Shown here in pieces: positions 10,801 through 27,725 of a stretch of DNA of 64,000 bases (position 1 is its first letter; every line of letters starts with the position of its first letter). A program made the position numbers and the translations under genes. The DNA is from Mayamaea pseudoterrestris (Eukaryota; Bacillariophyta; Bacillariophyceae; Sellaphorales; Sellaphoraceae), in NCBI GenBank assembly GCA_027923505.1, contig BROI01000020.1:248001-312000 (forward strand). Direction: 5' to 3'. The notes under the pieces were generated by a model. The model was not told the origin of the DNA. It ran no database searches and saw only the letters and a program-made list of their open reading frames with translations.

Positions 10801-11173
10801 TCACCAATAAGTTATCATACCTGCGAACAAATGTGAGTCTTTTTTAATGTCTCCACCACGAAACCCATCGGACACAACATAAGACTTCATGGTAGTTCAT
10901 ATCATATTCCTTCTGATGAGTTTGATATCTATCCCCAAGGCAAATAATCGACAGTTTTAGAAGGATCCATCCTGACAGGCAAGCGTAGCATCTTCTGTTT
11001 CAAAGAGCAGTCCACATCTTTCAATTGTCTCGAACAATCCTTCACCAATTAGGTATAGAGGACTTTATCACAGTAGAATTACAGTAAGTAATGGTCGTTC
11101 GAAAACTACTCTACTCAACTCGACAAACACTAGATCATTCTCCGTCTCTCCAGTTGCTCCCGTCTAGAACCAT
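10801..11173. other. Region without a supportable gene
   Basis: No frame of useful length and no repeat matching elsewhere in the window was found between the Kelch remnant and the end of the first FG-repeat gene. Confidence 0.3.
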
Positions 11174-12038
11174 TTACAAATCCTCAAGCCACGGCTGCAT
11201 CACCTCGGCAATCGTATCAATGGCCGCATGACTGACATATTCCTGCTTAACCTTCTTCCATCCCTTGCCAGACCACAACATGACACCAAATGGATTGGTA
11301 TTCTCCTCGACCTCATGCAAGCGGCATTTTGATTTCCAGACGACAAGCTTCAAAAGGACAGTCTTGGCGAGCGCTCGTCTTCAAAAGCGAACGAACTTGG
11401 TCTCCAACTTCGTCCAAGGCGTCTTGACTATTAGGCATCTGCAAGTGGATGAATTTGCGGCACAAGTAGCCATAAACTTGCTCCTTCCACGCATTATGTT
11501 CGAGCTTCTCAATGCGGTCGATCATATTCTCTCCAATGAAGCCAGCAAGGATGGGACGGTCATCCGCCGAGTTTTTAAACACTGCTGCTGGCCAGAAACT
11601 ACCGGTAATAGGCTCTTGTATTTGCAACTGCGAGTCCAAACGAAAACACGGATACGTAGCGACTGGCGCCTGAGTATTGCGAGGCGGATTACGAAATAAA
11701 AAAATGCTCGGCGGCAGCACTCCTTGCTGTTGACGTTCATGGTAGTCATTGAGCAAAGGGACGCCGTCTCCATCTGCAGCCGCAGATGGCGTTCCAAAGC
11801 CGAAACTTGGACGAGCAGCTGGAGGATCTTCGACACCAAAGCCTGCAGCTGCAAACCCTAAGCCTCCTCCAAGCCCGCCTGCGGGCTGCATCAGACCCGC
11901 TGCAACTGGCGCACCAAAGGCACCACCTTGCGGCGCACCGCCATCAGGAGCATCTGGCGGCGGTCCAAATAATCCGCCACCGCGAGCAGCTGGCGCTCCG
12001 AAATTAGAATTGTCGTTGTTCGGAGGATATCCAAACAT
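11174..12038 (-). CDS. FG-repeat nucleoporin-like protein, copy 1, frameshifted
   Basis: This is a shorter paralogue of the next gene upstream (12543-13805). The start is taken at 12038 because both genes share a conserved cttgatcatg around this ATG. The N-terminal half is Gly/Ala/Pro-rich with NFGAP, LFGPP, SFGFG and similar FG motifs. The C-terminal part has RIEKLEHNAWKEQVYGYLCR, closely matching RINKLEYNDWKEKVFGYFSR in copy 2. Near 11375-11388 (after VRSLL) the frame shifts. The paralogous tail (LLKLVVWKSKCRLHEVEENT to PWLEDL, stop at 11174-11176) continues in another frame, while the original frame stops at 11313. This is either a single indel that inactivated the tail or an assembly error. 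Confidence 0.6.
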
Positions 12039-12542
12039 GATCAAGGCAATTAATCGACAAGAGTGGTGCGGTGGGATCCAGGGCGACGCTGCACGGCTGC
12101 TGCCAAAAAGCTGAACCAGTTCCACGATGGCGATTTCCGTTGCGCGAGCTGTAGATGCCGGACTATGTCGTACCGGTTAAAATATCGGAGCAAGTTTGAC
12201 ATCCCCGCGGGAGCGAAACTGGCCACTTGATCGCAGCTTGCTACGGGATTTGGCGACTGAACGAGCGTATAGGTTATTTGTGTCAACTATGTTAATAGCT
12301 TCTTTGTTGACTTATCAGTGTTTTTGGTAAAGTGCCAAGATATCAGCCACACACTCTGAATTCTCCACGATAGACCACATCAACATTGCGTAAGTAGTAT
12401 GTAAGTTTACTGTTAGCACAATTATTGGATCGCCGTCGCAAGAATCCTGTACTCTACTCGAAAACACTTGTTTTCTGTTGCAGTTAAACTCCGACTCCCG
12501 TGTCGCTTTCATGTTTCACTAAGGTAATCTCTTGTCGCTCGC
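12039..12542. other. Spacer between the FG-repeat paralogues
   Basis: This 504-bp stretch between tandem genes contains no supported gene. It must hold the promoter of copy 1 and the 3' end of copy 2; gtaccggtta at 12165 resembles the recurrent TACCGGTA motif. Confidence 0.3.
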
Positions 12543-13805
12543 TTACTCCTCGAGCCATGGCCGAATGAGTTTCGCAACCGTTTCAATTGCCGCATCGTCA
12601 ACGTAATGCTGCTTGACCTTTTTCCATCCCTTACTGGACCACATGACGGCGCCAAGCGGGTTGGAATTTTCGTCGCTCGAGTGCAAACGACACTTGGCCT
12701 TCCACACCACCAGTTTCAAGACGGAGATCTTGGCAAGCACCTCCAAATGCTTCAGAAGAGCGAGCAACTTGTCTCCAAAGTCTTCATCCATCATGTTCGA
12801 ATCCGACTGCGCCTGGATCGACTTGCGGCTAAAGTAGCCAAAGACCTTCTCCTTCCAGTCATTGTACTCAAGCTTGTTGATGCGATCGACGATTTCCTGC
12901 GCAAGATGTCCGACAAGGACCGAGTCGCCGCCGCCCGTCTTTGACGTGGGGACGACTGGATTGTTGCGGTTAATGGGAGCTCGAAAGGACGAGTGCGACC
13001 CAAAAGGAACGAAGTTTGAAGTTGGAGCTGCAGCTGCAGCTTGAATTGAAGCGAAAGAAAAGCCATTCGATCCAAAAGCAGGTGGCGTAAAGCCAGTTTT
13101 GGTGGCCGGCGGAAAACCAAAAGACGACGCGGTTCCAAATCCGGCTGACTCATGCGGAGCAGGAGCTGTCGCGAAAGGAAAAGGCGAGCGAGGCCGGTCA
13201 AAGCGGTGAGCTGGATTTTTCTTACGTTCAATGAAAGGTATGTGTGGCTGCAGCTGCGGCAACGCTCCAAAACCTGCCGTAGCCCCGGAAAATCCGCCCA
13301 TCCAATTTAGTGACGTACCAGGCTGCGTTCCAAAACCAAATCCTCCAGATGTCGCCGACGGCGCTCCAAAAGCCGAGAGAAAAGGCTGCATTTCAAACCC
13401 AAATCCTCCAGAAGTCGCCAGCGGCGCTCCAAATCCTCCAGAGGTCGTCGAGAATCCATGGTCTCCTCCAAACCCGCCAATGCTGTGCGGAGCTGCGGAT
13501 GTTTCGCCAAAGAGTGAAGGAGCTGGCGCCGCACCAAATAAGCTGCTTGGAGCTGACGTCGTACCAAAACAGCTTGGAGCTGGAGCCGGCAGACCAAGAG
13601 CTACAGACGTCGCCGACGGGAATCCAAATCCTCCAGACGACGCCGCGAATCCAGGGCCTCCTCCAAACCCGCCTAAACTGTTTGGAGCTGCGGATGTTTC
13701 GCCAGAGACGGGAGGAGCCGGCATTGCACCAAATAAAGCGCATATGCTGCTACTTGGAGCTGATGGCGGCGCTCCAAACGAATGTTCATTCTTCCACTTA
13801 GTCAT
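12543..13805 (-). CDS. FG-repeat nucleoporin-like protein, copy 2 (420 aa)
   Basis: The start is placed at the ATG at 13805 (MTKWKNEHSFGAPP), because the sequence around it is shared with copy 1; the frame stays open 23 codons further upstream. Residues 1-290 are low complexity with more than 20 FG dipeptides, often GGFG, GFGAP, SLFG or FGFG. This composition builds the selective phase of nuclear pores. Residues about 310-420 are a conserved folded-looking region (RINKLEYNDWKEKVFGYFSR, LKLVVWKAKCRL, MWSSKGWKKVKQHYVDDAAI, IRPWLEE). I cannot match that tail to a named nucleoporin domain, so the class of Nup is open. Its alternation of FG repeat and tail differs from Nup98 autoproteolytic ends. 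Confidence 0.7.
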   Translation of the reverse strand: MTKWKNEHSFGAPPSAPSSSICALFGAMPAPPVSGETSAAPNSLGGFGGGPGFAASSGGFGFPSATSVALGLPAPAPSCFGTTSAPSSLFGAAPAPSLFGETSAAPHSIGGFGGDHGFSTTSGGFGAPLATSGGFGFEMQPFLSAFGAPSATSGGFGFGTQPGTSLNWMGGFSGATAGFGALPQLQPHIPFIERKKNPAHRFDRPRSPFPFATAPAPHESAGFGTASSFGFPPATKTGFTPPAFGSNGFSFASIQAAAAAPTSNFVPFGSHSSFRAPINRNNPVVPTSKTGGGDSVLVGHLAQEIVDRINKLEYNDWKEKVFGYFSRKSIQAQSDSNMMDEDFGDKLLALLKHLEVLAKISVLKLVVWKAKCRLHSSDENSNPLGAVMWSSKGWKKVKQHYVDDAAIETVAKLIRPWLEE

Positions 13806-14215
13806 GATCAAGACAGTCAGAGACAGTGGTGCGATGAAAGATGAAGACGATGCTGCTGCTGCTGCTGCTGCCAAAATTCTGAATCGGTTCCTCGATGAAG
13901 GCGCATTTTCCGTTGCGTCGGCGCGGTTGCGTGATTTACTGTCGTAGCGGTTCCATAAAGTCGTAGCGGGTCTGGCATTCCTCGCGGCCGCGAAACGTGC
14001 GAGCCATCACTCGTCATCCCAGCTTGCTACCGTACGGGATCAAGAGACTGAGTTGAAAAACGGCTCATCTGGTCCAAGAGTAATACTCATTTACAGTGGT
14101 GTTCGGTAAAAGTTGATTAGGCGTGCAACCACACTCGGAAACGTTTCGACGTACATCTCGCCTCTCGACGAGCCTTGACGACCATCAGCAAACCACTACA
14201 AATTTTGATACTACT
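13806..14215. promoter_or_regulatory. Divergent promoter region, FG gene / ASCC3
   Basis: This 410-bp region lies between divergent starts at 13805 and 14216. It contains a (GCT)n run at 13853-13870 and no convincing small gene. Confidence 0.35.
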
Positions 14216-17200
14216 ATGGAAGCCTTCCTCAAAGACCTTTGTTCCAACAAGAAGAAATCATATGTATGTGATGCACAGGTGCAGTCGGCCCTTGCTGGCC
14301 TCGCCGTCGCTCTGCGTGACGTACTCCCCATTCTAAAATCGTCTCATGCACAAGGCGGATCACCAAACGAAGCAGCTTCACCATTGCAAGAGTCTCCGTC
14401 GTCCTCATCATCACTCATCAATGCATCATGGCTGCTGAAACATTGTTCCACTGTATCATCCGCACTGGGTGCCAACTACTTGGCCGAGTGCATTTACGAC
14501 GTGGCAACGAACGAATCACTCGACGAAGCGTCGCAGCAGGCTGCCCTCTTTGACGTGCTGGGGTCGTCCGATCAGGCCATGGCAGTCTTGTTTGAAATCA
14601 TGCCAGTGATGCGGGAGATTGCTCGTAACATGCGACGAGACGAACTAGTATCGGATGATACAATAGTGCAAAATGGCAATGCTGTTGCAGCCGCACCAAT
14701 CTACGTTGACCTGGAGGAGGAAAAGCGACAATTGCTAGTGCAGGAAGCCAGGGAAGCGGCGCAACTGGCCGAGCTGGCGCGTCAGGAGCTAGAGCACGCC
14801 AATTCGTATACAAACGCGTCAGAAACCTTGACGCACTCGGTCGCTCGACAATCCAATCGCGACGCAACCAAGCAGGTGGAGCGGCTCGAAAAGAAGGCGG
14901 CGCAAGCCTTGGCTCGCGCCAAGGAGCAAGGCGCCATTCTTGACGATGAAATCTTTTGGAAGCTTGATTTGCAGGAGCGAGGACCGGGTGGCTTGATGAA
15001 GAAATCGACAAACGATTTGGAGGCTTTGCATGATTCGCTGCTGGCAAGTGGTGCGAAGCAATACTACAACGATAAGGGGTTGCCGTTTGGAACAATGTTT
15101 GAAAAGGGTAGTGGCTACGAAAAGGTTATTATTCCAGCTGCTCGTCGAGATGAATCAAAGCTACCGGACCGTCTCAAGGTTCGTGAAGTAATGGACGAAG
15201 CCTGCCAGCGCGCGTTTGATGGTACAGAATCACTCAACCCAATGCAATCAACAGTATTTGACGTTGCCTTTTGGGGCAGAGAAAACATGCTTGTGTGTGC
15301 GCCCACGGGAGCTGGTAAAACGAACGTGGCAATGCTAGCGGTAGTGTCGCATTTTCGAGACGTTGGGTTGCTTCCAGGCGCGTCAACGAGCAACCAAACC
15401 ATTATGGAGACTGGACGCAAGGTTGTTTACATTGCACCAATGAAGGCATTGGCGCAGGAAGTTGTCGAAAAATTTTCCTCCAAGTTGAAATCATTGCGGC
15501 TCATCGTGCGCGAACTGACGGGCGACATGCAGCTGACGCGGGCCGAAGCAGAGTCGGCCAATGTCATTGTCACAACTCCGGAAAAATGGGATGTTGTGAC
15601 ACGCAAGTCCGGCACGGATGAACTTTCTCTCGGCAATCAGTGTGGGCTCTTGATTATCGACGAGGTAAGATGACAATAGTGTCCATTGTTATTTGTGTTG
15701 TGATTGTTTCGTCAACGCTGACTCCCCTGCCCTACGGCTCAGGTCCATTTGCTAGCGGATGATCGAGGCGCTGTCATTGAGTCCGTAGTGGCTAGACATC
15801 ACAGGCTTGTGGAAGCGTGTCAACGCCAACTTCGAATTGTGGCCTTGTCGGCAACACTGCCGAATTATATGGATGTTGCAAACTTTCTTCAAGTGCCTCC
15901 TCGAGGAATCTTTTTCTTTGGGCCTGAGTTTCGCCCAGTGCCACTGCAACAGTCAATGATTGGGATCTCAAAGAAAGATCGAAGGCAAAGGGATATAAAA
16001 ATGAATGAGATTTGCTATGACATTGTCATTGATTCGCTACGTCGCGGCTATCAAGTAATGGTATTTGTGCATTCAAGAAAAGGTACTGGTGATACGGCGC
16101 GCGCGTTGGCGGATCTCGCTGCAGCAGATGGCGCTCTCGAAAGTCATTTCGTCACAGCTGGGAAGGACGGTGTTGCGGGAGATGCATATAGTAGATACAA
16201 GGACAAGGTGACCAAGTCGAGGGACCGTCAAGTAGCCATGCATTTTCAGAATGGTATGGGAATTCACCATGCTGGAATGTTGCGTGGCGACCGCAAGCTG
16301 ACGGAGAACATGTTTAGCGACGGTGCCATAAAAATCCTATGCTGCACAGCGTAAGCCATGCACAAACTAGTGATTATATGCTTGTGCTTATTGGTTTTCC
16401 ATTCGTGCACTTACATTCGTCGCCATACTTGCTCGGTTTTCTAAAATGACAGCGTAAGTTTTCGTTGGATGTCGTGCATCTTCTCGTAAAAGCGTGCACT
16501 CACCCTGCTTATCACTTCATCAACTACCGGCAGACGCTAGCATGGGGAATTAACCTCCCGGCGCACACGTAGGAATATTGGTGCTGTATTTTTTTAACCA
16601 AACAATAGCGGTGCTTGATTCTCACAACAGCGTCACTCTTGCTGTACAACAGGGTTATAATAAAAGGAACAGAAGTGTACAACCCTGAGAAGGGTGGCGC
16701 CGTCGATCTATCAATTTTGGATGTGCAACAAATTTTTGGACGAGCTGGTCGACCGCAGTTTGACTCTTCGGGTGAAGCAACTTTAATAACGTCGTATGAC
16801 GCTTATCAGCGATACATAACAAAACTTGTCCGTGCCGTCCCAATCGAGTCAAATTTTATCAAACAACTTCCAGATCATTTGAACGCAGAGATTGTGGGTG
16901 GAACCGTGTCGACCATACAAGAAGCCGTGCAATGGCTTGGATACACGTACCTGCATATCAGAATGCTTGGCAATCCTCTGGCGTACGGAATTAAACCCGA
17001 GGAGAAGAATGATGATCCAACGCTTGTGTCTCGCCGCCGCGAGCTCATCGTGCATGCCGCGAAGCATCTTAGTGCCACTAAGATGATCGCCTATGCACAA
17101 GCATCCGGCAATTTGTCTGCCAGAGAAATGGGACGAACAGCCGCTCACTTTTACGTTCAATCCGAGAGTGTGGCGACGTTTAATGACCAGATGGGAAGTA

Positions 17201-20200
17201 ACAAAAATCTTTCGAATGCATCCCTTGTTCACACCATTGCATCGGCTAGCGAGTTTCAGAATATGAAAGTGCGGCAAGAAGAACTGGAGGAACTTGAGAA
17301 GATTGCCGGCAATTGTCCCTTGGAGATTAGAGGTGCTGGACTTGATGATGGGGGCAGAGGCCTCGTTACTAGTGCCACCGACAAGGCCTTCCTGCTAATT
17401 CAGGCCTACATATCAAAGGAACGGATAACTAGTTTTACACTCATATCAGACGTTAATTATATCTCGGCGAACGCTGGACGTATCGCGCGGGCGCTTTTTG
17501 AGATGTGTCTCAAGCAAGGTGATGCTGGGTCAGCAATGAAACTCTTACGGATTGCGAAGAGCGTCGATAATCGAATCTGGTGGTTTCAAACACCATTACG
17601 ACAGTTTGAAGGCGAGATTCGTGATAATGCGCTTCTACATCTCGAAAAGGCCGTCAGCTCCGAATACAGTGGGCTTGCGTCAGTCACGTCTTTGCTCGAC
17701 CTGCACCCAAACGAGGTTGGTAGCCTGTGTCATTGGCACAAAGGTGGTGAGAAAGTACAAAGTTTGATCCGTATGCTTCCACAATTTGAAGTGGATTGTC
17801 GTGTATTGCCTGTAACAGGTAGTATACTCAAATTCCACGTCACATTGACGCCGACGTTTGTTTGGCATGGACGATGGCATGGGGGCGGACAATCATTTTG
17901 GTTCTGGATCGAGAACACTGAGAGTAAGCGCATCTACCACCATGAGCAGTTCACACTGACAAAAGCAAAGAGTGCAAGCTCATTTGCGATTGATGCCATG
18001 GCACCAATTTTTGGCGAGTCAGGCCAATTTGTGGTAAAGATCATATCCGACTCGTGGGTCGGTGTTGAGCAGGTTGTACCTATTTCTATTGAAGAATCTC
18101 AGTTACCCAGGCAAGACGAAGTGTTGACGAAGCTTCAAGATTTGACTCCCCTTCCGACGTCGGCTTTACAAAATGCTGCTTATGAAAAATTGTATCCGTT
18201 TCATGCATTCAACCCGATTCAGACGCAATTATTTCATGTTCTCTACCATACGGATTCTCCCGTTCTGCTGGGTGCGCCAACAGGAAGTGGCAAGACAATC
18301 GTTGCAGAGTTAGCTCTTCTCCGACTGAAGAAACTCCGACCCTCAAGCATCTGCGTTTACATTGCTCCACTAAAGGCGCTTGCCCGAGAGAGACTGAAGG
18401 ATTGGCAGCGACGACTTGGTGCGCCACCCCTTAACTGGAACGTCTTGGAATTGTCGGGTGATACGCATCATGATTTGTCACGGCTGGAACGATCGGATGT
18501 GCTGATATGCACACCTGAAAAATGGGATCTTCTCTCACGCGGATGGCGAGGTTTTCAAACGGGGGGCGCCGTTAAGGAAAAATCGTTCGTGAAACGTGTG
18601 GGCCTTCTCGTGATAGACGAAGGTAAGCTAGTGTTCACTATGCACTAGTGATCACCAGTATTGCATTCAACTCAACCTTTCCTATTCGTTAAAGTGCACT
18701 TGCTCGGCGAAGAAAGAGGAGCTGTCCTCGAAGCCATTGTTAGTAGGACCCGGTTTATTTCTCGAACGCTGCAACAATCGAAAGGGCCGAAGGACGAGGA
18801 AGAAACACGTATTGTCGGACTTTCCACGTCCCTTGCGAACGCCGTCGATTTAGGTGCTTGGATTGGCATTGAGACAGAAAGTATGAGTTCGAGCAACCGA
18901 CAAGGTCTGTTTAATTTTTCTCAATATGTTAGGCCGATACCCATCGCGGTGCACGTCCAGGGATTTTCCGGCAAGCATTATTGCCCCAGAATGGCAACGA
19001 TGAACAAGCCTTGCTATGCGGCTATAAAGGACTACGCTCCGACAAAACCAACTCTTATATTTGTTGCCTCGCGTCGCCAGACTCGTCTTACGGCAATTGA
19101 CTTAATCAGCTATGCAGCAAGTGATGAACAGCCTATGTCCTTTCTGGACTGTAGCCAAGACTACATCGAATCGGTTGCCGAGAATATCCGCGACGAGTCA
19201 TTACGCCATACGCTGACGTTTGGCATCGGTTTGCACCATGCGGGCCTTACTTCTGCTGATCGAGAGGTTGTTGAGCGTTTATTTTTAGAAGGTCGGATTC
19301 GTGTTTTGGTGGCAACTGCGTAAGTCATTGATAGTGTCATCGTTTGACGAGTAACTTCTTGCGCTGATCCATTTTTCTCTTCCTGTAGTACCCTTGCATG
19401 GGGCCTGAATTTGCCCGGACGATTATGCATTGTTAAAGGAACTGAATATTTTGATGGGAAGTCTTCGCGTTACGTCGATTATCCCTTGACTGATGTTTTG
19501 CAGATGATCGGTCGCGCTGGCAGGCCAGGGTTTGATACGCAAGCATTCGCTGTGGTAATGGCTACTGAAGACAAGAAGAATTTCTATAAGAAGTTTTTGG
19601 TGAGCGAACGTTTTTCTCTGCTTGCTATGAGCGCACACATGTTTACATACTAACCCTTGCGCGTCAATTTTACCGTAGTATACCTCGTTTCCAGTGGAGT
19701 CTTGTCTACAAGATAAATTATGCGAAAACATTAATGCTGAAATTGCAAGTGGGACGATATCAACGACGGTGGATGCGCTGGGTTATTTGTCGTGGACATT
19801 CTTTGCGCGCCGGGTAAAAGCCAACCCATCTTATTATGGCGCCAAGTCATCCGACGACGATGACGTCGAAGAGTTTCTCTTTTCCACTGTAAAAGACACG
19901 CTGGCCCAACTTGACGAGAGCGGCTGCATCGTTACTCAGCTAAACGACGACACTGCCCAGGTTAAGTCTACTTCATTGTCTATTGCAGCTGCGAGTTATT
20001 ATCTCAGCCATCGCACACCAAAACAAATGCAGTTTGGCGTCAAAGAAGGTCGACGCATTGTTCTGAACTATCTTGAAGAAGAAACAAATTCCAAAGTCAG
20101 CGACTCCCTTAAAACGAGTTTGAGTTCATTTGAACGCTCGCCACGCATCGACGAAGTTGCATCCGGATGGCTGTTGTACACGCTCTGCTCAACACATGAG

Positions 20201-21094
20201 TTTGACGAACACCCTGTCCGCCATAATGAGGAGCATTTAAACGAGGAGCTAAGCCGTAGTCTCATGTGGGGCCCAGACATGACGATGCTGCTTTCCGGTC
20301 GCCGAAGTTACAATATTGAGATCTTCCAAGATCCTCACACAAAATGCTTTTTGCTACTGCAAGCCTATTTGCAGCGTGCCAAGCTTCCGATCACCGACTA
20401 CGTGAACGATACAATGAGCGTGGTCGACAATGTACCCCGTCTGCTAGCGGCGATGGAGTATATCGCTTGCCAGGACAAGGAGCAGCCAGGCAGCTTCGAG
20501 TTGCTGACGCAATTTTCTCGAACGCGACAATTCGTTGCAACCAAAAGTACACCACAGAGCGACCCCGTGTTGCTCCTAGTTGGTGCTCCTGAGTTTACGG
20601 TAAACAAGCAGAAGAACAGCAACCATATCACTTCTTTACGAGAAATTCGCGCGATGCCACGTGCAACTGCTGTGAATACCATTTCACAATTGACGCGTTT
20701 GAACAAGAAGAGAGTTGATGTGGCCATCACCTCCCTTTTTAGATTACCACTCGTCAACTTGAATAAGTGTGCGGTCTCTCATCATGTCGATAAGGCGACC
20801 GGAAAGGCAGTCGGCAAGCTTGAAATGCATTTACAGATGGAACGCCAACGAGACAAGGCCGACAATGAAGTTTCCTTGACGATTCTTCTTGGTAGCTATC
20901 ACCAAAAGATGCTTTTGGGACAGTCATCGATCAGAATCGACAGGTCGGGGAAATTCGATGTAGTCCGAACGGTCGAGTTTGATTGGAACAGGGCTAATGC
21001 CGATGGTGGAGCGGAGGGTGGACGAATGATTATTCGACTATTGTTTGATAACATACGAGGGCTCGATGCTGAAATGCTGATTAGCCTGACGTAA
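14216..21094 (+). CDS. ASCC3: ASCC3-type Ski2-like double-cassette helicase (2104 aa)
   Basis: Proposed exons are 14216-15664, 15743-16350, 16453 (one nucleotide), 16534-16568, 16653-18622, 18695-19319, 19389-19599 and 19679-21094, totalling 6315 nt in frame. ASCC3 unwinds DNA for AlkB-type repair and pulls apart collided ribosomes as part of the ASC-1/RQT complex. Cassette 1 has Walker A APTGAGKT (about residue 362), DEVH and a TLAWGINLP motif. Cassette 2 has GAPTGSGKT (about residue 1237), a second DEVH and [10 protein letters not shown]. Each cassette is followed by a Sec63-type region. GLSTSLANA and [12 protein letters not shown] in cassette 2 favour ASCC3 over the related spliceosomal Brr2. 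Splicing within both DEVH and both motif V regions occurs at equivalent places, consistent with cassette duplication after intron gain. Confidence 0.9.
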
Positions 21095-21740
21095 CGAGAC
21101 GCCATGGAATGTAAGCCTGCCGCACGTCTATAAGAGGAGAATAGCATTCTGTCAACTTCCTCTGTGCGATTAACGGTAAGTATTAGTCAGCATACGAGTA
21201 CCCTCAGGATCCTGACTCTGCAGATATAAGTGTTGAAGTAGACTATAACAATTGAACCTCAAGTTTGGGACAGCTGCCCAACGGGATGCTTTCCGTAGGC
21301 TGATCTGTTTGGTCTGATTGGCACACTTGTCAATGACTGGTCCGTTCTTTATAATAACTAACAAGGCCCATTGCCATGTGTACGACTAAATAACTCTTTG
21401 ATGAACCACTATTATAAACGCCGCAATGCCGTTGGCATTTTTCCCGCGGCGTCGTACTGCAAAATCCGTCTTTCATTTGACATTTGGTTATTAGCTAGGG
21501 CAAGTTTACCAGGAAGCTAACGGAAGCTGCACATGATGTAGTTAAGCAAGAAATGCACTTATATGGCTTATTGGATGTTAAGCTACTTTAAGTGATAGCC
21601 ATCTCCGCCGGTCTCGCTACATCTCGCACATATCAACCAAATCGAACCGAGAGACAGCTTGGATCATATGATCATCATCACAGCACATCAACAACAAAAA
21701 CAAAGCACACTACCAGGATAATACGGGACCAAATTATTGC
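21095..21740. other. Convergent intergenic region
   Basis: This 646-bp region lies between the 3' ends of the ASCC3 gene and the P450 gene. It has only short frames and no recognisable RNA gene or repeat. Confidence 0.35.
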
Positions 21741-23369
21741 TTAATCGCTTCTCGCCTTGATCACGAAGTTACAATCCTCCGGAAAAATGGTCGGAAAGTA
21801 GACAAACTCGTCGGCGGTAGGACGACGTCCAGTGCGATGAAAATCATACTCTTGCGCAACTACTGCCAAAAAGACATTGAGCAGTGACTCAGCATACTTC
21901 CTTCCGGGACACTTGTGTTGGCCACCTCCAAACGTCACCGTCTTGACAAACTGCGAGTCCTGATCCTCGCGCTCGGGTAAAAACTCGATACTTGCTCCAC
22001 TCGCACGAGCAGAGTACTGAATTGATGGAATAGCGACGCATCCCTTGGGCAAAGCATGACCGCCTAGCATGGCTGGCTTCTTGGTAATGTGAGGAATCAT
22101 TGGAACGGGCGGCTTGTGGTGCAAAAGCTGATTTGCAACCTTGGCAAGGTAGGGCAAGCCATCCACTGCACGCGACTGGCTCCAAATTTCTCCCTTTCCA
22201 CACTTGTCATCAACTTCCTGCCGGAGCCTTGTCAAAACATCTCGACGCGCATCCAGCACATCCACCGACGCTGCAAGAGCCGAGTTGGTTGCATCCTGCG
22301 CGGCAAACATAAAGTCAAGCACTGATCGAGCCAAATCATTATCCTTGCACTGAGGCACCTCATGCGGCTCACACCCAAGCTCCTTGGCAGCGTCAATAAT
22401 GCTTTTGCACCAGTGCTCAATCATGCAGCGCGGTTCATTGCCAGCCGCAATATAAGCACGCGCCTTGGGAACAATCTCCTTGACGGTCTTTTCAATGCGA
22501 TGCTTGGCCTGAATGGCTTTGCTCAGTCCAAAAAAGTACGGAAACGGAAAGCAGAGAAAGCCCATGGTAAAGGTGAGTATGTCACGCTCCAAGTGGCTAC
22601 GAATCTCATCCGTTAGATAAGGCCCAATGAATGATTCCTGCGACGATGCGGCAGCCATGCTGCGAAAGGAATTTTTCAAGTCAATCGGCTTGCCGGAAGC
22701 AGTGCACTGCTCCTTGTATTTGATCATGTAGGCTCGCACGACGCGTTCCTGCGCCTGCGCGTACTGGGCCAAGGCCTCGCTGGAGAAGAGTGCCGGCGTC
22801 AAAATGGCGCGAAACTTTTTGTGCGGTTCCCTGTCAAGGTAAATGAGATTATCTGGATCAAAGAGCCAAAGAGCATTTGGATGGGCGTATACACCAAACG
22901 ATCCTTCTCCCGTCAAAATGTCTCGACAGAGTTGCGGATCGGTGCAAAACACCATAAAGTTGCTCACCAACAAGTTGGTACACATGCCAGCTTCTGATTC
23001 CATGGCAATGTCAGCCATTTCTGCCCAGAAACGCGTCGGTTTGATGATCATGGCAATCAGCGACACAAAAGGTAAGGTGTAGGGGACACCCGGAAGGCTT
23101 CCTTTGTAGTAGTAATACTTGGCGGCATCCATTGCAATCAGTGTCAGTGAGATCTTGATTACCATGGGAGGAATGACAAAGAGTTTGTACATTAAAAAGA
23201 GGAAACCAAAGGTATACACATTGAGCTCATGATGAAAGGTATGAAATCGTTTTTGCTTTGGAGCAATGCTCTCCTGTTGGCCGTTTGCAGCAGCAAGCTT
23301 GGGTGAGGGCTGCTCAATCGTCTCGTTAACGAGAGAAGCGTCCGTTGGCGTTTGAGCGCGAGGAGCCAT
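21741..23369 (-). CDS. CYP61/CYP710-like cytochrome P450 with altered ExxR (542 aa)
   Basis: The best match by eye is the sterol C-22 desaturase group (ERG5/CYP61 of fungi, CYP710 of plants), which introduces the side-chain double bond of ergosterol or stigmasterol at the ER. Shared blocks are NLIYLDREPHKKFRAILTP, FIGPYL, the I-helix FMFAAQDATNS and the C-terminal FVYFPTIFPEDC. A membrane anchor lies around residues 60-85. The heme loop FGGGQHKCPGRKYAE is complete with Cys487. The K-helix ExxR motif, normally REVIRYRPP in this family, reads NQLLHHKPP here, with Gln414 and His417 in place of Glu and Arg. The region between it and the heme loop is also short. The start at 23369 is chosen because TACCGGTA lies directly 5' of it. 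It diverges from SBDS by 424 bp. Confidence 0.8.
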   Translation of the reverse strand: MAPRAQTPTDASLVNETIEQPSPKLAAANGQQESIAPKQKRFHTFHHELNVYTFGFLFLMYKLFVIPPMVIKISLTLIAMDAAKYYYYKGSLPGVPYTLPFVSLIAMIIKPTRFWAEMADIAMESEAGMCTNLLVSNFMVFCTDPQLCRDILTGEGSFGVYAHPNALWLFDPDNLIYLDREPHKKFRAILTPALFSSEALAQYAQAQERVVRAYMIKYKEQCTASGKPIDLKNSFRSMAAASSQESFIGPYLTDEIRSHLERDILTFTMGFLCFPFPYFFGLSKAIQAKHRIEKTVKEIVPKARAYIAAGNEPRCMIEHWCKSIIDAAKELGCEPHEVPQCKDNDLARSVLDFMFAAQDATNSALAASVDVLDARRDVLTRLRQEVDDKCGKGEIWSQSRAVDGLPYLAKVANQLLHHKPPVPMIPHITKKPAMLGGHALPKGCVAIPSIQYSARASGASIEFLPEREDQDSQFVKTVTFGGGQHKCPGRKYAESLLNVFLAVVAQEYDFHRTGRRPTADEFVYFPTIFPEDCNFVIKARSD

Positions 23370-23793
23370 GACTACCGGTACTTGAAGCCGTATAATGTAG
23401 CGAGATGAGTCTACTCTTTTAGATTGATAGCGAGGCGAAAGAGCTTTTGTTCTTTTTGCTTCCCATGGTTGATCCAAGGATGTGGTTGCAGCTTCCGAGG
23501 CCAACGTCGTCGTCCCTCGCTGGCGTCATCGCAGCAAACAATGCTGTCACACTGTTACTGTCTGTTCGTACTGTATGCCGGTACGACGTTTTGAAACGCG
23601 GGCGCACAGAAACGAGGCCATGGCAAATCTGCCGCACGTTTCACATCAGCCCTCCAGAATTGATCGCAAGGCAACTCGCAAGCGAAAACAAGAGTTGCGT
23701 ACGCTGTTTCGGCCAGATTCACCATTGCTTTGGTGATATAGGAGACGCCATTGACAGCCAACTACTTGAAGATTCCATACCAGCAGCAACACC
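23370..23793. promoter_or_regulatory. Divergent promoter region, P450 / SBDS
   Basis: This 424-bp region separates the starts at 23369 and 23794. It includes an exact TACCGGTA at 23373-23380, immediately 5' of the P450 ATG, and a near match (gccggtac) at 23579. Confidence 0.4.
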
Positions 23794-25209
23794 ATGTCTC
23801 GTTTGATTCAACAACCCATCAATCAAGTCAAGCTCACCAATGTGGCCGTCGTCAAGCTGCAGTTGCAAGGCAAGCGATTCGAAGTTGCTTGCTATCGCAA
23901 CAAGATTATGGATTATCGCAGCGGTCACGAGACGGACATTTCCGAAGTGCTGCAAGCCGATCGCGTTTTCACCAACGTGAGCAAGGGACAATTCGCCAAG
24001 ACGCAAGACTTGCGCCAAGTGTTTGACACGACGGACCAACAAGTGATTGTCAAGATTATTTTGAATCACCCCAAATCGATTGTTCAAGTGTCGGACAAGG
24101 AGCGGGAGCTCCAGCAGGCGGACTCGCTGGCGCGCATTTCTACGTGGATGGCCAACCACTGCGTGCATTCGGAAACGCAGCAGCCCTACACGGTGTTGCA
24201 GATTCAGAGTGCACTTGCTTCGAGCGGATACAATGTGCAGCCCCATAAAGCGTTGAAGAAGCAGTATTTGGATGCATTAAAGTATTTGAAGCAAATGAAT
24301 GTGTTGGATATTGAGCGTGCGAAAATGGAGCTTTTGTTGGCTTGCACCCATGAGGAGCAGGATTCAGTCATGGCAGCGCTCCAGAAAATGGAACCACCAG
24401 TGATGATTCTCATGGTGGAGCGACTGGAGCAATCGACGAATGCAACTGCGACGAAGAGTGATGCATTGTTTGTCATTCGCATGCAGGTTGATCCGTCGCT
24501 GTATCGAAACCTTGATCAGCTGGTGCAGTCCATCAAGGGAGGAAAGCTGGAAATTGTGCACCAACAAGTGGTGACGGATGTGAATGCAAACGTTGCTCAG
24601 CAGGGCAAACGTTCTAACGAAAGAGGTAACGACGTGCGCGCGACAACGTCCTCCGGAGCTGCAAACGCAAACGAGAGTGACAAGCTCAAGCAGCAACGCG
24701 ACAAGGACGCAGAAAGCAGCTCGGTCAGCAGCAGTGACTCGGAATTGGAAAACACTGAGCAAAGAATGGCAGGAGTGTCTCTTCGAAATGATGATAATGC
24801 TAGTGCAAGCGACGATTCAGAATCGGAAAAGGAGGAAACTATCGTTCCAGTGTCGCGCAAGCAGCTTCGGCAGCAACAAAAGAAGCATTCAAAAATGTCT
24901 AAGCGTCAGCAGGAAGCAGTGGATGAAGAGGATGCAGATTCATCGGATAAAACTGCGCCAGAATCTACCACTAATCGCGTAAATTACACTTTGGCCAGTA
25001 CCACAGCGGCTACGTCAACTGACCCAGATGCCAAGAGTTGCAACACTTGCGGCGGATCATTTCCCAGCGCTGCTGCATATCGCACTCACTTTAAATCAGA
25101 TTGGCACCGCTTCAACCAAAAGCTAAAGCTGCAGGGACTGCCACCGGTGTCGGAGCAAGAGTTTGATCTAGTTGATGCTGATGCCTTTTTCGCGGAGAAT
25201 TTGTCGTGA
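23794..25209 (+). CDS. SBDS: SBDS ribosome maturation factor with C-terminal zinc finger (471 aa)
   Basis: Residues 1-235 match SBDS, which works with the GTPase EFL1 to release eIF6 from new 60S subunits. Typical blocks are KRFEVACYRNKIMDYRSG (FYSH domain), DISEVLQADRVFTNVSKGQF and a central helical domain with TVLQIQSALASSGYNV. Human SBDS is 250 aa, so this one is much longer. After an acidic, Ser/Glu-rich linker (about 270-400) it ends with a C2H2 finger, CNTCGGSFPSAAAYRTHFKSDWH, of the U1/JAZ type. Such tails are known in plant, algal and trypanosomatid SBDS and could add RNA binding. The start is the first ATG of the frame and matches the family's N-terminus. Confidence 0.92.
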   Translation: MSRLIQQPINQVKLTNVAVVKLQLQGKRFEVACYRNKIMDYRSGHETDISEVLQADRVFTNVSKGQFAKTQDLRQVFDTTDQQVIVKIILNHPKSIVQVSDKERELQQADSLARISTWMANHCVHSETQQPYTVLQIQSALASSGYNVQPHKALKKQYLDALKYLKQMNVLDIERAKMELLLACTHEEQDSVMAALQKMEPPVMILMVERLEQSTNATATKSDALFVIRMQVDPSLYRNLDQLVQSIKGGKLEIVHQQVVTDVNANVAQQGKRSNERGNDVRATTSSGAANANESDKLKQQRDKDAESSSVSSSDSELENTEQRMAGVSLRNDDNASASDDSESEKEETIVPVSRKQLRQQQKKHSKMSKRQQEAVDEEDADSSDKTAPESTTNRVNYTLASTTAATSTDPDAKSCNTCGGSFPSAAAYRTHFKSDWHRFNQKLKLQGLPPVSEQEFDLVDADAFFAENLS

Positions 25210-25370
25210 TAGTTGCAAAACGGATGCGTTGGTCCTACTTTATAGTGGATTTGAAATTGATCAATATGTAAAGAATATATGGTTCTTGTTATCGTATTTT
25301 CTATTTGTGGCTAACAGATGCACCCAATAGTGCAGATGATTTGTGTACAGACATCAATCCATTGAATAAT

Positions 25371-27725
25371 CTATACTTGCGCGTGCCGTTGTTGGTAGTG
25401 GTGTTGTTGCTGTTGTTGCTGCTGCTGTTGCTGCGCATCGTCAAAGTTCAAATCGGATAAACTTACATCCAATCCGGTCAAAAGAGTCTCAAGTTGCCCG
25501 TCTTCTAGCTCACCTATACTGGAGAAGCGGCCGCTCGCGCGTGACTTGAATGTGGGAACTTCGAACGAGCCTACCGGCTGTATTTGCGATGGCTGCGCGT
25601 ACGTTTGAGCTTGGGCGCCGCCATTGAATGAAGGTGGCAATGGCGTCGGCTGCATGGCCGCTGCATCCACTTGCATTCTATCCAACTGCGCTGCTATTGA
25701 TGCAATCGGTGCACTCGGCATGACGGCATGGTATGTTTCAAAGTATGGTTGGGGCTGAACTTGCGGCGGTCCTAAATGTAGATTTCGCATTGCTCCAATC
25801 GCGTCCATTCCCATGGAAATGCCTGCTTGCCCATTTGGATCCATGGGCCTCATCGTTGGATACGCGTGTAGTGTTGCTTGTTGTTCATGCCGCTGCTGCG
25901 CTTCGACCGCCGCTTTCGCCAGCAGCTGCCTCTGCAAAATAGCCAGCATGCCGCCGTCGTCCTCGTCCTCATCCACAGAAGCAACGTGCTGCGCATGTTC
26001 AGCAAGCTCATCCGATTCACCATTGTCTTCATACCATGCATCATTACTATTATTATGTAAATTGAAAGACCCACTGAAACTCTTGCTGCTTGCATACGTT
26101 TCTTCCAAATCGCCCCGTCGAGCTTGTCGCCGCGGTGGCGGTGGCATGATATCCTGCGACGGCGTTTGCGACGTGCTGAATCGTCGACTATACGGCGCGT
26201 CACCGTAGTGACTGTAGTGGCCGCTACCGCCGCCTTCGCCGTATGCGTCTCGCCCCGAAGATGCCCGCATCATTGCTGGCGGAGCGGTATCAAAGTTGGC
26301 TTCGGCGAAACGATCTCGCTGCTGCTTGACTACCGCGGAACCCGAGTTCTTGTTCAACATGTTGGTGGTGAGGCTTCGAATCTTGCTGGTCAAACCCTGT
26401 CGCTGTTTTCGTCGTTGTAACGAGGCGACAGCCGCAGACCGCAATTTTGCATCCTGCTGAATGGATGGAGGCGAGTTGCTGGTTGCGGATGTTCCATGTA
26501 CTGCTTTTGATACCGTCACGGGCGCCCGGCTCAATGGCACGTCACGACTCTGAAATGGATTCTTGAGTCTCAGCAACGAGGGGCGCCTGGTGGTATTTGT
26601 TGCCGTCGGTTTCGCAGCCACCACTGGAGAATCAGGCGCTGCATCTGGATCAAGAAGTCGCATCAAACCCAGCTTGGCAGCAGGTTTATCCAACAATTGC
26701 CACTGCGGCTTGGATTGGTTCGATTGAAACTCCTGCTGCTGCGCCAAAAATCGCCCGCCCCAAAATTCTGTCACGGTCTGATGCAACTCATCCAACATTG
26801 ATTGTCGTTGTTCTTCGCTGCCTGTCTTAAATGGTTGTTCCTTGATGCTAATCAATACATTGAGTCTATTATTGCCGGCATGGTTGATGGCATCCGTGTC
26901 GTTGGTTGCCAATACAAGTGCTGATTGCTTGGCATCAAACACAACATCCAACGGTTCCACGGCATTCACCGTCACTGGAGATGCCTTGCCTTCTACCTCC
27001 ATTTCTTCCTCGTGCATCTGACTACTTGCAGCAGCACTACCAAAGAGTGCCTTCAAATTCGCAAGGGACTTTTTCATGGATAACTTTTGTCCATCGTCCG
27101 TGACGGATCGACGCAGCAGCGATGATCGTCGGCGACGCTTCTTGGCGTCATCCTGTGACTCGATCTTACCAACGACAGGCTCAGTTGCAGCAGCAGCAAC
27201 AGCAGCAGTTGACACTTTATCACTGTTAATTGCAATTGTTGAAAAAGGTGCACTCGTCGTTGCTTGCTCCGCTGCCGCCGCCGCAACATTTTCTTGCACC
27301 TTGGCAGGCGGTGAGAGCAAGAGGCTCCGCACAAAGTTTTGCGCCAGCTGCGGAGACAGTTCTAACCCAAGCGGTAACTGCTCGGCTTCATCATGTTCAT
27401 TATTTTCGTGATTGATCAAAACAAACTTGGCTTGATAGTCGCGAGACATGACAGTGACAATCTCCTCGGCGGACTTGTCATAGTCTTGACTAGTACTATT
27501 TGCTGCTGCTGCAGATAGCTGCGAAACGTAAAGGTCGCAAAGTACCTGGAGGCGATTGCTTCCAATGTAGGTCAAGCCAGAGCTCAAGACAAAGGGGCAA
27601 CTACCGGTAGTATGCGATTCTTCAATGTGAAATTGCCGCCGCTGCGTCACCAAAACGTCGCGCTTGGTGTACGAGCAGCTCGGCAGAAGCGACAGCTCGT
27701 CGGTGACGCTGCTGCTGTTGCTCAT
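25371..27725 (-). CDS. Protein with two degenerate DUF6824-like segments (784 aa)
   Basis: Two regions resemble the DUF6824 domain expanded in diatoms. One is near residues 20-140 (DVLVTQRR, IGSNRLQVLCDLYVSQL, AEEIVTVMSRD). The other is near 255-365 (GNNRLNVLISIKEQPF, LDELHQTVTEFWGGRFLAQQ, WQLLDKPAAKLGLMRLLDPD), with the GGRFL and K-LL core of the family. Function of that domain is unknown, though its members are often fused to regulatory modules. The remaining half is low complexity: Ala, Ser, Pro and Gln runs, basic KKRRRRSSLLRR and an end of ten Gln in a row, all suggesting a nuclear regulatory protein. No intron is needed. A TATA-like TTTATAG lies about 10-17 nt before the ATG. Confidence 0.65.
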   Translation of the reverse strand: MSNSSSVTDELSLLPSCSYTKRDVLVTQRRQFHIEESHTTGSCPFVLSSGLTYIGSNRLQVLCDLYVSQLSAAAANSTSQDYDKSAEEIVTVMSRDYQAKFVLINHENNEHDEAEQLPLGLELSPQLAQNFVRSLLLSPPAKVQENVAAAAAEQATTSAPFSTIAINSDKVSTAAVAAAATEPVVGKIESQDDAKKRRRRSSLLRRSVTDDGQKLSMKKSLANLKALFGSAAASSQMHEEEMEVEGKASPVTVNAVEPLDVVFDAKQSALVLATNDTDAINHAGNNRLNVLISIKEQPFKTGSEEQRQSMLDELHQTVTEFWGGRFLAQQQEFQSNQSKPQWQLLDKPAAKLGLMRLLDPDAAPDSPVVAAKPTATNTTRRPSLLRLKNPFQSRDVPLSRAPVTVSKAVHGTSATSNSPPSIQQDAKLRSAAVASLQRRKQRQGLTSKIRSLTTNMLNKNSGSAVVKQQRDRFAEANFDTAPPAMMRASSGRDAYGEGGGSGHYSHYGDAPYSRRFSTSQTPSQDIMPPPPRRQARRGDLEETYASSKSFSGSFNLHNNSNDAWYEDNGESDELAEHAQHVASVDEDEDDGGMLAILQRQLLAKAAVEAQQRHEQQATLHAYPTMRPMDPNGQAGISMGMDAIGAMRNLHLGPPQVQPQPYFETYHAVMPSAPIASIAAQLDRMQVDAAAMQPTPLPPSFNGGAQAQTYAQPSQIQPVGSFEVPTFKSRASGRFSSIGELEDGQLETLLTGLDVSLSDLNFDDAQQQQQQQQQQHHYQQRHAQV

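What the first reader, a model, noticed from the sequence alone, without database searches (positions are those of the whole stretch)
16346..16540. Probable one-nucleotide exon in the ASCC3 helicase gene
Exon 2 must end at 16350 with two bases of a codon (gc). The next clear exon starts at 16534 with acg cta gca tgg (TLAW), which needs a third base to give the conserved A-T-L-A-W of motif V. Between them a single C at 16453 is flanked by AG (16451-16452) and GTAAG (16454), giving introns of 102 and 80 nt. Both sizes are normal for this genome. Including it, the whole coding sequence is 6315 nt, divisible by three. Cassette 2 splits at the same place (gc|t acc), supporting the needed codon. The 10-mer ACAGCGTAAG occurs at both donors, 103 nt apart, as if one intron came from a small duplication.
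Basis: partly seen in the sequence, partly recalled or inferred. Interest (0 to 1): 0.8.

Follow-up and report, generated by a model that had tools for sequence, protein, structure and literature searches.

The report
One-letter exon in a diatom helicase
A diatom helicase gene appears to need an exon of a single DNA letter to spell one conserved amino acid, an extreme form of splicing known from a few plant and fungal genes, and public gene models of it are broken at this very spot.

Summary
The window comes from the pennate diatom Mayamaea pseudoterrestris. Its ASCC3-like gene (14216-21094) reads as one 2104-residue protein if a single C at 16453, between CAG and GTAAG, is an exon between introns of 102 and 80 nt. 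The C completes the alanine codon of T-A-T-L-A-W. A second copy on contig C4 keeps CAG|C|GTAAG although its flanking introns lost 1 and 6 nt, and dN/dS between the copies is below 0.2 on both sides of the junction. Of 2725 one- or two-intron splicings tried in the window, two keep the motif. Both are 1-nt exons; the other (16493) needs a 40-nt intron and a very poor donor. Nested introns fail. A TA-AG intron or a GC donor remain unlikely rivals. The two deposited models I saw break exactly here. No RNA was available, so splicing is inferred. One-nucleotide exons are known (plant APC11 and VPS55, Fusarium CYP621A), so this is a new member of a known kind; my searches listed none in a diatom. 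The suggested duplication origin is not supported.

The parts
14216..15664 (+). exon 1 of the ASCC3-like helicase gene (1449 nt)
   Evidence: open frame from ATG 14216 to the GTAAG donor
15743..16350 (+). exon 2 (608 nt), ends with GC, two bases of the alanine codon
   Evidence: frame and homology
16351..16452 (+). intron 2, GTAAG...ACAG, 102 nt (101 nt in the C4 copy)
16453..16453 (+). proposed single-nucleotide exon, C, third base of alanine codon GCC
   Evidence: enumeration of splicings, conservation in the C4 copy at C4:21452, homologues
16454..16533 (+). intron 3, GTAAGT...GCAG, 80 nt (74 nt in the C4 copy)
   Evidence: weak acceptor
16534..16568 (+). exon 4 (35 nt), [12 protein letters not shown]
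16653..18622 (+). exon 5 (1970 nt)
18695..19319 (+). exon 6 (625 nt), ends with GC of the cassette-2 alanine codon
19389..19599 (+). exon 7 (211 nt), starts T ACC CTT GCA TGG, the cassette-2 counterpart with one ordinary intron
19679..21094 (+). exon 8 (1416 nt) with stop TAA
16493..16493 (+). rival single-nucleotide exon (AAAAG|C|GTGCA), judged unlikely

Best explanation
The gene encodes a two-cassette ASCC3/Slh1-type helicase. Between exon 2 and the 35-nt TLAW exon lie two short GT-AG introns that meet at an exon of one nucleotide, C16453, the third base of the alanine codon in the conserved T-A-T-L-A-W of cassette 1. Shown from sequence: the frame needs exactly one extra base, CAG|C|GTAAG supplies it, and a second gene copy keeps the arrangement. 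Inferred: each short intron is recognised on its own and the two are removed one after the other, since two spliceosomes could hardly share one base. Also read from the sequence: failures meet early stops (GCG TAA if the first of these introns is kept; GCA CGC TAG if the C is skipped; TAA as the thirteenth codon if only the second is kept).
For: Frame and motif: 6315-nt CDS with one terminal stop in both copies. Motif: 119 of the 120 listed homologues give a residue at this place, 116 Ala and 3 Ser, none a deletion; two of the 119 (P0050, P0059) score as if aligned to cassette 2. Enumeration: only two of 2725 splicings keep [13 protein letters not shown] at 2104 residues. Splice sites: donor 16454 scores 8.79 bits (70th percentile of 46 modelled introns), acceptor at 16452 scores 6.08 (24th), donor 16351 scores 6.31 (33rd). 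Second copy: CAG|C|GTAAG kept, 57 bases around it (16444-16500) unchanged, indels of 1 and 6 nt in the two introns; 9 of 11 indels within the gene lie in the introns and the other two are a +1/-1 pair in exon 1; dN/dS 0.19 upstream and 0.14 downstream of the junction. The deposited model P0001 itself uses the donor at 16454.
Against: No RNA evidence. The acceptor before the TLAW exon is weak in both copies (1.85 and -1.37 bits, below all 46 modelled introns), which burdens any GT-AG reading that includes that exon. The 46 introns are ab initio models picked with a score threshold. The copies may have exchanged sequence (dS 0.198 upstream, 0.078 downstream), so they are not fully independent. 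DNA of other species was not available.
Confidence: 0.85

Rival explanations
1. One 182-nt intron with non-canonical TA-AG ends, GCG|TAAGCC...CAG|ACG, giving the same alanine from GCG.
For: With any boundary dinucleotides allowed near the two ends, TA-AG is the only single gap that keeps the motif in both copies.
Against: TA-AG is not a recognised spliceosomal class (recalled). GT-CA, the other single option in the window, becomes GT-TA in C4. A strong CAG|C|GTAAG site in the middle would be a coincidence of about 0.001 to 0.002.
Confidence: 0.04
2. A GC-AG intron from 16349 to 16533, joining ACA to ACG and dropping the alanine.
For: In frame in both copies.
Against: Removes a residue that none of the 119 homologues giving a residue there lacks; the donor scores -8.4 bits (the model was trained on GT donors only, so this overstates the penalty).
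Confidence: 0.03
3. The 1-nt exon is C16493 (AAAAG|C|GTGCA), with introns of 142 and 40 nt. The protein would be the same.
For: The only other canonical splicing tried that keeps the motif, also present in the C4 copy.
Against: Donor -3.3 bits, acceptor 3.23 bits; the 40-nt intron (34 nt in C4) is shorter than all 46 modelled introns, the shortest being 50. Both candidates supply a C, so ordinary cDNA cannot tell them apart; partly spliced RNA or a mutant can.
Confidence: 0.03
4. Assembly error: one base is missing and the true structure is one ordinary intron of about 183 nt.
For: A single missing base would explain the frame.
Against: Two loci on different contigs have the same AG|ACG junction in different local contexts (GGCAGACG and ACTAGACG), outside any homopolymer.
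Confidence: 0.02
5. The gene is really split or broken here, as the deposited models have it: an N-terminal protein ending CCTA and a separate C-terminal one.
For: P0121 and P0001 are deposited in this form.
Against: dN/dS is low on both sides (0.19 and 0.14). In the split form the cassette-1 Helicase_C domain is in neither half, whereas it is found across the junction in the joined stretch. 99 of 120 homologues read straight through the motif.
Confidence: 0.02

Closest known systems
Single-nucleotide exon of Arabidopsis APC11 (PMC4674806; parts 1 and 2 of 3 read), and the plant 1-nt microexons of APC11 and VPS55 (PMC8831610; passages read)
   Same: One base between AG and GT, needed for the frame, missing from annotations; stepwise removal of the two introns proposed
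   Different: Plant nuclear genes with proof from cDNA, RNA-seq and mutants; here a diatom helicase gene, short introns, and no RNA yet
1-nt exon of Fusarium CYP621A P450 genes (PMC12940212; parts 1 and 2 of 3 read)
   Same: Found because two exons in a conserved motif could not be joined in phase; AG|N|GT in an intron region of ordinary double length
   Different: Fungal genes, exon G as the middle base of a glycine codon, conserved in orthologues, confirmed by reads; here C as the third base of an alanine codon, conserved in one duplicate pair
Spliceosomal twin introns, stwintrons (search listing and abstract beginnings only)
   Same: Two adjacent introns removed in consecutive reactions
   Different: In stwintrons one intron interrupts a splice element of the other and no exon base remains; no nested option keeps the motif here
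Recursive splice sites, zero-length exons (search listing only)
   Same: An acceptor followed at once by a donor, stepwise removal
   Different: Here one base lies between AG and GT and stays in the mRNA; the introns are short

Membership tests
Single-nucleotide exon | One base flanked by AG and GT splice sites, with plausible intron lengths on both sides | tested here: met
   CAG|C|GTAAG, introns 102 and 80 nt, inside the 50-200 nt range of 46 modelled introns
Single-nucleotide exon | The base is needed for reading frame and a conserved motif | tested here: met
   Two of 2725 splicings keep the motif, both with a 1-nt exon; homologues
Single-nucleotide exon | Conserved in related genes | tested here: inconclusive
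   Kept in one duplicate copy, which may have exchanged sequence with this one; DNA of other species was not available (one search found none)
Single-nucleotide exon | Transcripts contain the base | not testable with these tools
   No RNA data
Stwintron | One intron interrupts the donor or acceptor of the other and leaves no exon base | tested here: not met
   9 nested options with split donor or acceptor per copy, none keeps the motif; a split branch point was not tested
Recursive splice site | AG directly followed by GT, zero-length exon | tested here: not met
   One base lies between AG and GT
ASCC3/Slh1 helicase | Two helicase cassettes with Sec63 units, closer to ASCC3 and Slh1 than to Brr2 | tested here: met
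   Cassette-1 stretch: ASCC3 8alz E 6.5e-107, Slh1 8.1e-98, Brr2 3.5e-86; Pfam DEAD and Helicase_C in both cassettes and two Sec63 stretches

The most novel reading that the evidence does not exclude
Single-nucleotide exons arose independently in stramenopiles, and in this diatom the shared base works as an ordered, fail-safe splicing switch: one intron must leave before the other, and each of the three wrong outcomes read from the sequence meets a stop within 13 codons, so the efficiency of the two steps sets how much working ASCC3 helicase is made from both gene copies.
Probability: 0.1. Interest if true: 0.65.

Novelty: new member of a known kind. Interest (0 to 1): 0.5.

Why it matters
It would extend 1-nt exons, described in the papers I saw from land plants and Fusarium, to the stramenopiles, and suggest that spliceosomes of distant lineages all tolerate a shared one-base exon. 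The two very short introns and the duplicated copy make a compact natural test of ordered splicing. It also shows a practical fault: the two deposited models I saw of this conserved helicase break at this point.

Tried and rejected
Tandem duplication as origin: the introns show no similarity beyond the 10-mer (533 of 1000 shuffles reach the score). Nested stwintron readings: none fits. A single canonical intron: none tried keeps the motif. A first splice-site model drifted to wrong introns and was replaced. A first alignment to the C4 copy used the wrong orientation and was repeated; the first exon model was one base short at exon 4 and was corrected. A look for the same motif in the other Sec63 loci reached only cassette 2 of this gene, because the fetched flanks were short, so Brr2 was not compared at DNA level. 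One scan of viral contigs for relatives' DNA found none; bacterial and archaeal contigs were not scanned. The genome paper of the species was not held. Literature: 'single-nucleotide exon' listed 14 papers and six other names for 1-nt exons 12 papers, none with a diatom in title or shown abstract; 'microexon' or 'micro-exon' with 'diatom', and 'smallest exon' with 'stramenopile', listed one paper each, none on a diatom 1-nt exon by title and shown abstract. Of all these I opened three: PMC4674806, PMC12940212 and PMC8831610.

Full report
What is there. Exon 2 ends ...TGC TGC ACA GC at 16350 before GTAAG. A single C at 16453 lies between AG (16451-16452) and GTAAG (16454-16458). The next exon begins ACG CTA GCA TGG at 16534. 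I built the whole gene: exons 14216-15664, 15743-16350, 16453, 16534-16568, 16653-18622, 18695-19319, 19389-19599 and 19679-21094. The CDS is 6315 nt, 2104 residues and a stop, without internal stops. The seven introns are all GT-AG, of 69 to 102 nt (with the end of exon 4 corrected).

Where it comes from. The best protein match is a hypothetical protein of Mayamaea pseudoterrestris on a contig of 673252 bases, the length of contig C20 in which the window lies. This is a pennate diatom of the order Sellaphorales. The protein is an ASCC3/Slh1-type helicase: a 157-residue cassette-1 stretch matches ASCC3 (8alz) best, then Slh1, then Brr2.

Why one extra base is needed. Joining exon 2 directly to the TLAW exon reads GCA CGC TAG. 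Of the 120 best homologues (of 5129 found), 119 give a residue at this place: 116 alanine, 3 serine, none a deletion. Two of them (P0050, P0059) have low scores and read VAT-TLAWG, so they were probably aligned by their cassette 2; without them it is 115 alanine and 2 serine of 117. The one without a residue is the deposited protein of this very gene.

Enumeration. I tried 198 single and 2527 double splicings with GT or GC donors and AG acceptors between 120 nt before the end of exon 2 and the end of exon 4 (introns of at least 30 nt). Two keep [13 protein letters not shown] at 2104 residues: the 1-nt exon at 16453 (introns 102 and 80) and one at 16493 (introns 142 and 40). In the C4 copy 201 and 2500 were tried and the same two remain, the second with a 34-nt intron. 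Nested introns with a split donor or acceptor: 9 options per copy, none keeps the motif. With any boundary dinucleotides near the two ends, a single intron works only as GT-CA or TA-AG in the window, and GT-TA or TA-AG in C4, so TA-AG is the only shared one.

Splice-site strength. The donor after C16453 scores 8.79 bits (70th percentile), the acceptor before it 6.08 (24th) and the exon-2 donor 6.31 (33rd). The rival donor at 16494 scores -3.3 and its acceptor 3.23. Against the reading, the acceptor before the TLAW exon scores only 1.85 in the window and -1.37 in C4, below all 46; any GT-AG reading that includes that exon shares this. The introns are models chosen with a score threshold, not proven ones.

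The second copy. A duplication of about 15 kb (window about 11072-26417) lies on C4 at about 11.5-27 kb from the contig start, at 92-94% identity in its main pieces; the 601 bases around the finding are 95% identical. Its ASCC3 copy has the same eight exons, 6315 nt and no internal stop, with C at C4:21452. Between exons 2 and 4 it has 176 nt against 183: a T is lost in the first intron and six bases in the second, right before the acceptor, where GGCAG is replaced by ACTAG. CAG|C|GTAAG is unchanged, within 57 unchanged bases (16444-16500). Inside the gene 9 of 11 indels fall in the introns, which are 8% of its length; the other two are a +1/-1 pair in exon 1. dN/dS is 0.17 overall, 0.19 upstream and 0.14 downstream of the junction, so the downstream half still seems to be translated in frame. 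A caution: dS is 0.198 upstream and 0.078 downstream, which hints at exchange between the copies, so they are not fully independent.

Chance. CAGNGTAAG occurs 361 times on both strands of 30.6 Mb, about 0.001 per 182 nt; in the 264 kb sample the figure is 0.0023, for AGNGTAAG 0.0057 and for AGNGT 0.50.

What the public annotation did. P0121, from the C4 contig, equals residues 1-686 of my C4 model and stops after CCTA; the next codon is the TAA inside GTAAG. P0001, from the window's contig, begins MTA and from its fourth residue equals my model. By the sequence this fits a start at ATG 16446 inside the intron, the donor at 16454 and a jump to 16653, skipping the TLAW exon. Each record stands for two members, probably the two copies, but I did not see the other members. 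The cassette-1 Helicase_C domain is in neither half and is found in the joined stretch.

Other species. Of the 120 best homologues of the N-terminal part (of 1023 found), 99 read straight through the motif, 13 do not reach it and 8 break in or near it. Besides P0121, two (P0123, P0210) break right after CCT and continue GKP or GI, which fits an unspliced G|GTAAGCC or G|GTAT donor in the same alanine codon, one base earlier than here. It suggests that an intron has sat in this codon in other lineages and lies one base later in Mayamaea.

How it probably works. Both introns are short. They cannot well be spliced at once, because one base separates the acceptor of the first from the donor of the second, so removal is probably stepwise, as Guo and Liu argue for APC11 (PMC4674806). 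Origin: perhaps a one-base loss near a splice boundary, rescued by a cryptic AG-N-GT, as Nelson and Syed propose for Fusarium (PMC12940212). A local duplication is not supported.

Novelty. Searches for names of 1-nt exons and for microexons in diatoms or smallest exons in stramenopiles listed plant, Fusarium and mitochondrial cases but no diatom. It is a new member of a known kind in a new lineage, pending RNA proof.

Noticed in passing
window 11072-26417: A segment of about 15 kb is duplicated on contig C4, about 11.5-27 kb from its start, at 92-94% identity in its main pieces.
   Followed up: partly
window 14216-21094: Divergence between the two ASCC3 copies is uneven: exon 1 differs at 8.1% of sites and exon 5 at 1.9%; dS is 0.198 upstream and 0.078 downstream of the junction. 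This hints at gene conversion between the copies.
   Followed up: partly
window 15664/15743 and 18622/18695: Both helicase cassettes carry an intron at the DE|VH motif, but one base apart (phase 0 in cassette 1, phase 1 in cassette 2; exons), as if an intron had slid by one base.
   Followed up: no
L031 and L032 (G000:C16:517477-518424 and 526841-527788): Two Sec63-domain loci 9.4 kb apart give the same score and frame length (108.5 bits, 610 aa), which suggests a recent tandem duplication of another helicase gene.
   Followed up: no
G000:C1:108971-110701: An array with spacing of mostly 42 bases carries CAGAGTAAG or CAGGGTAAG in 32 of the 100 listed places; it inflates the genome count of CAGNGTAAG.
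   Followed up: no
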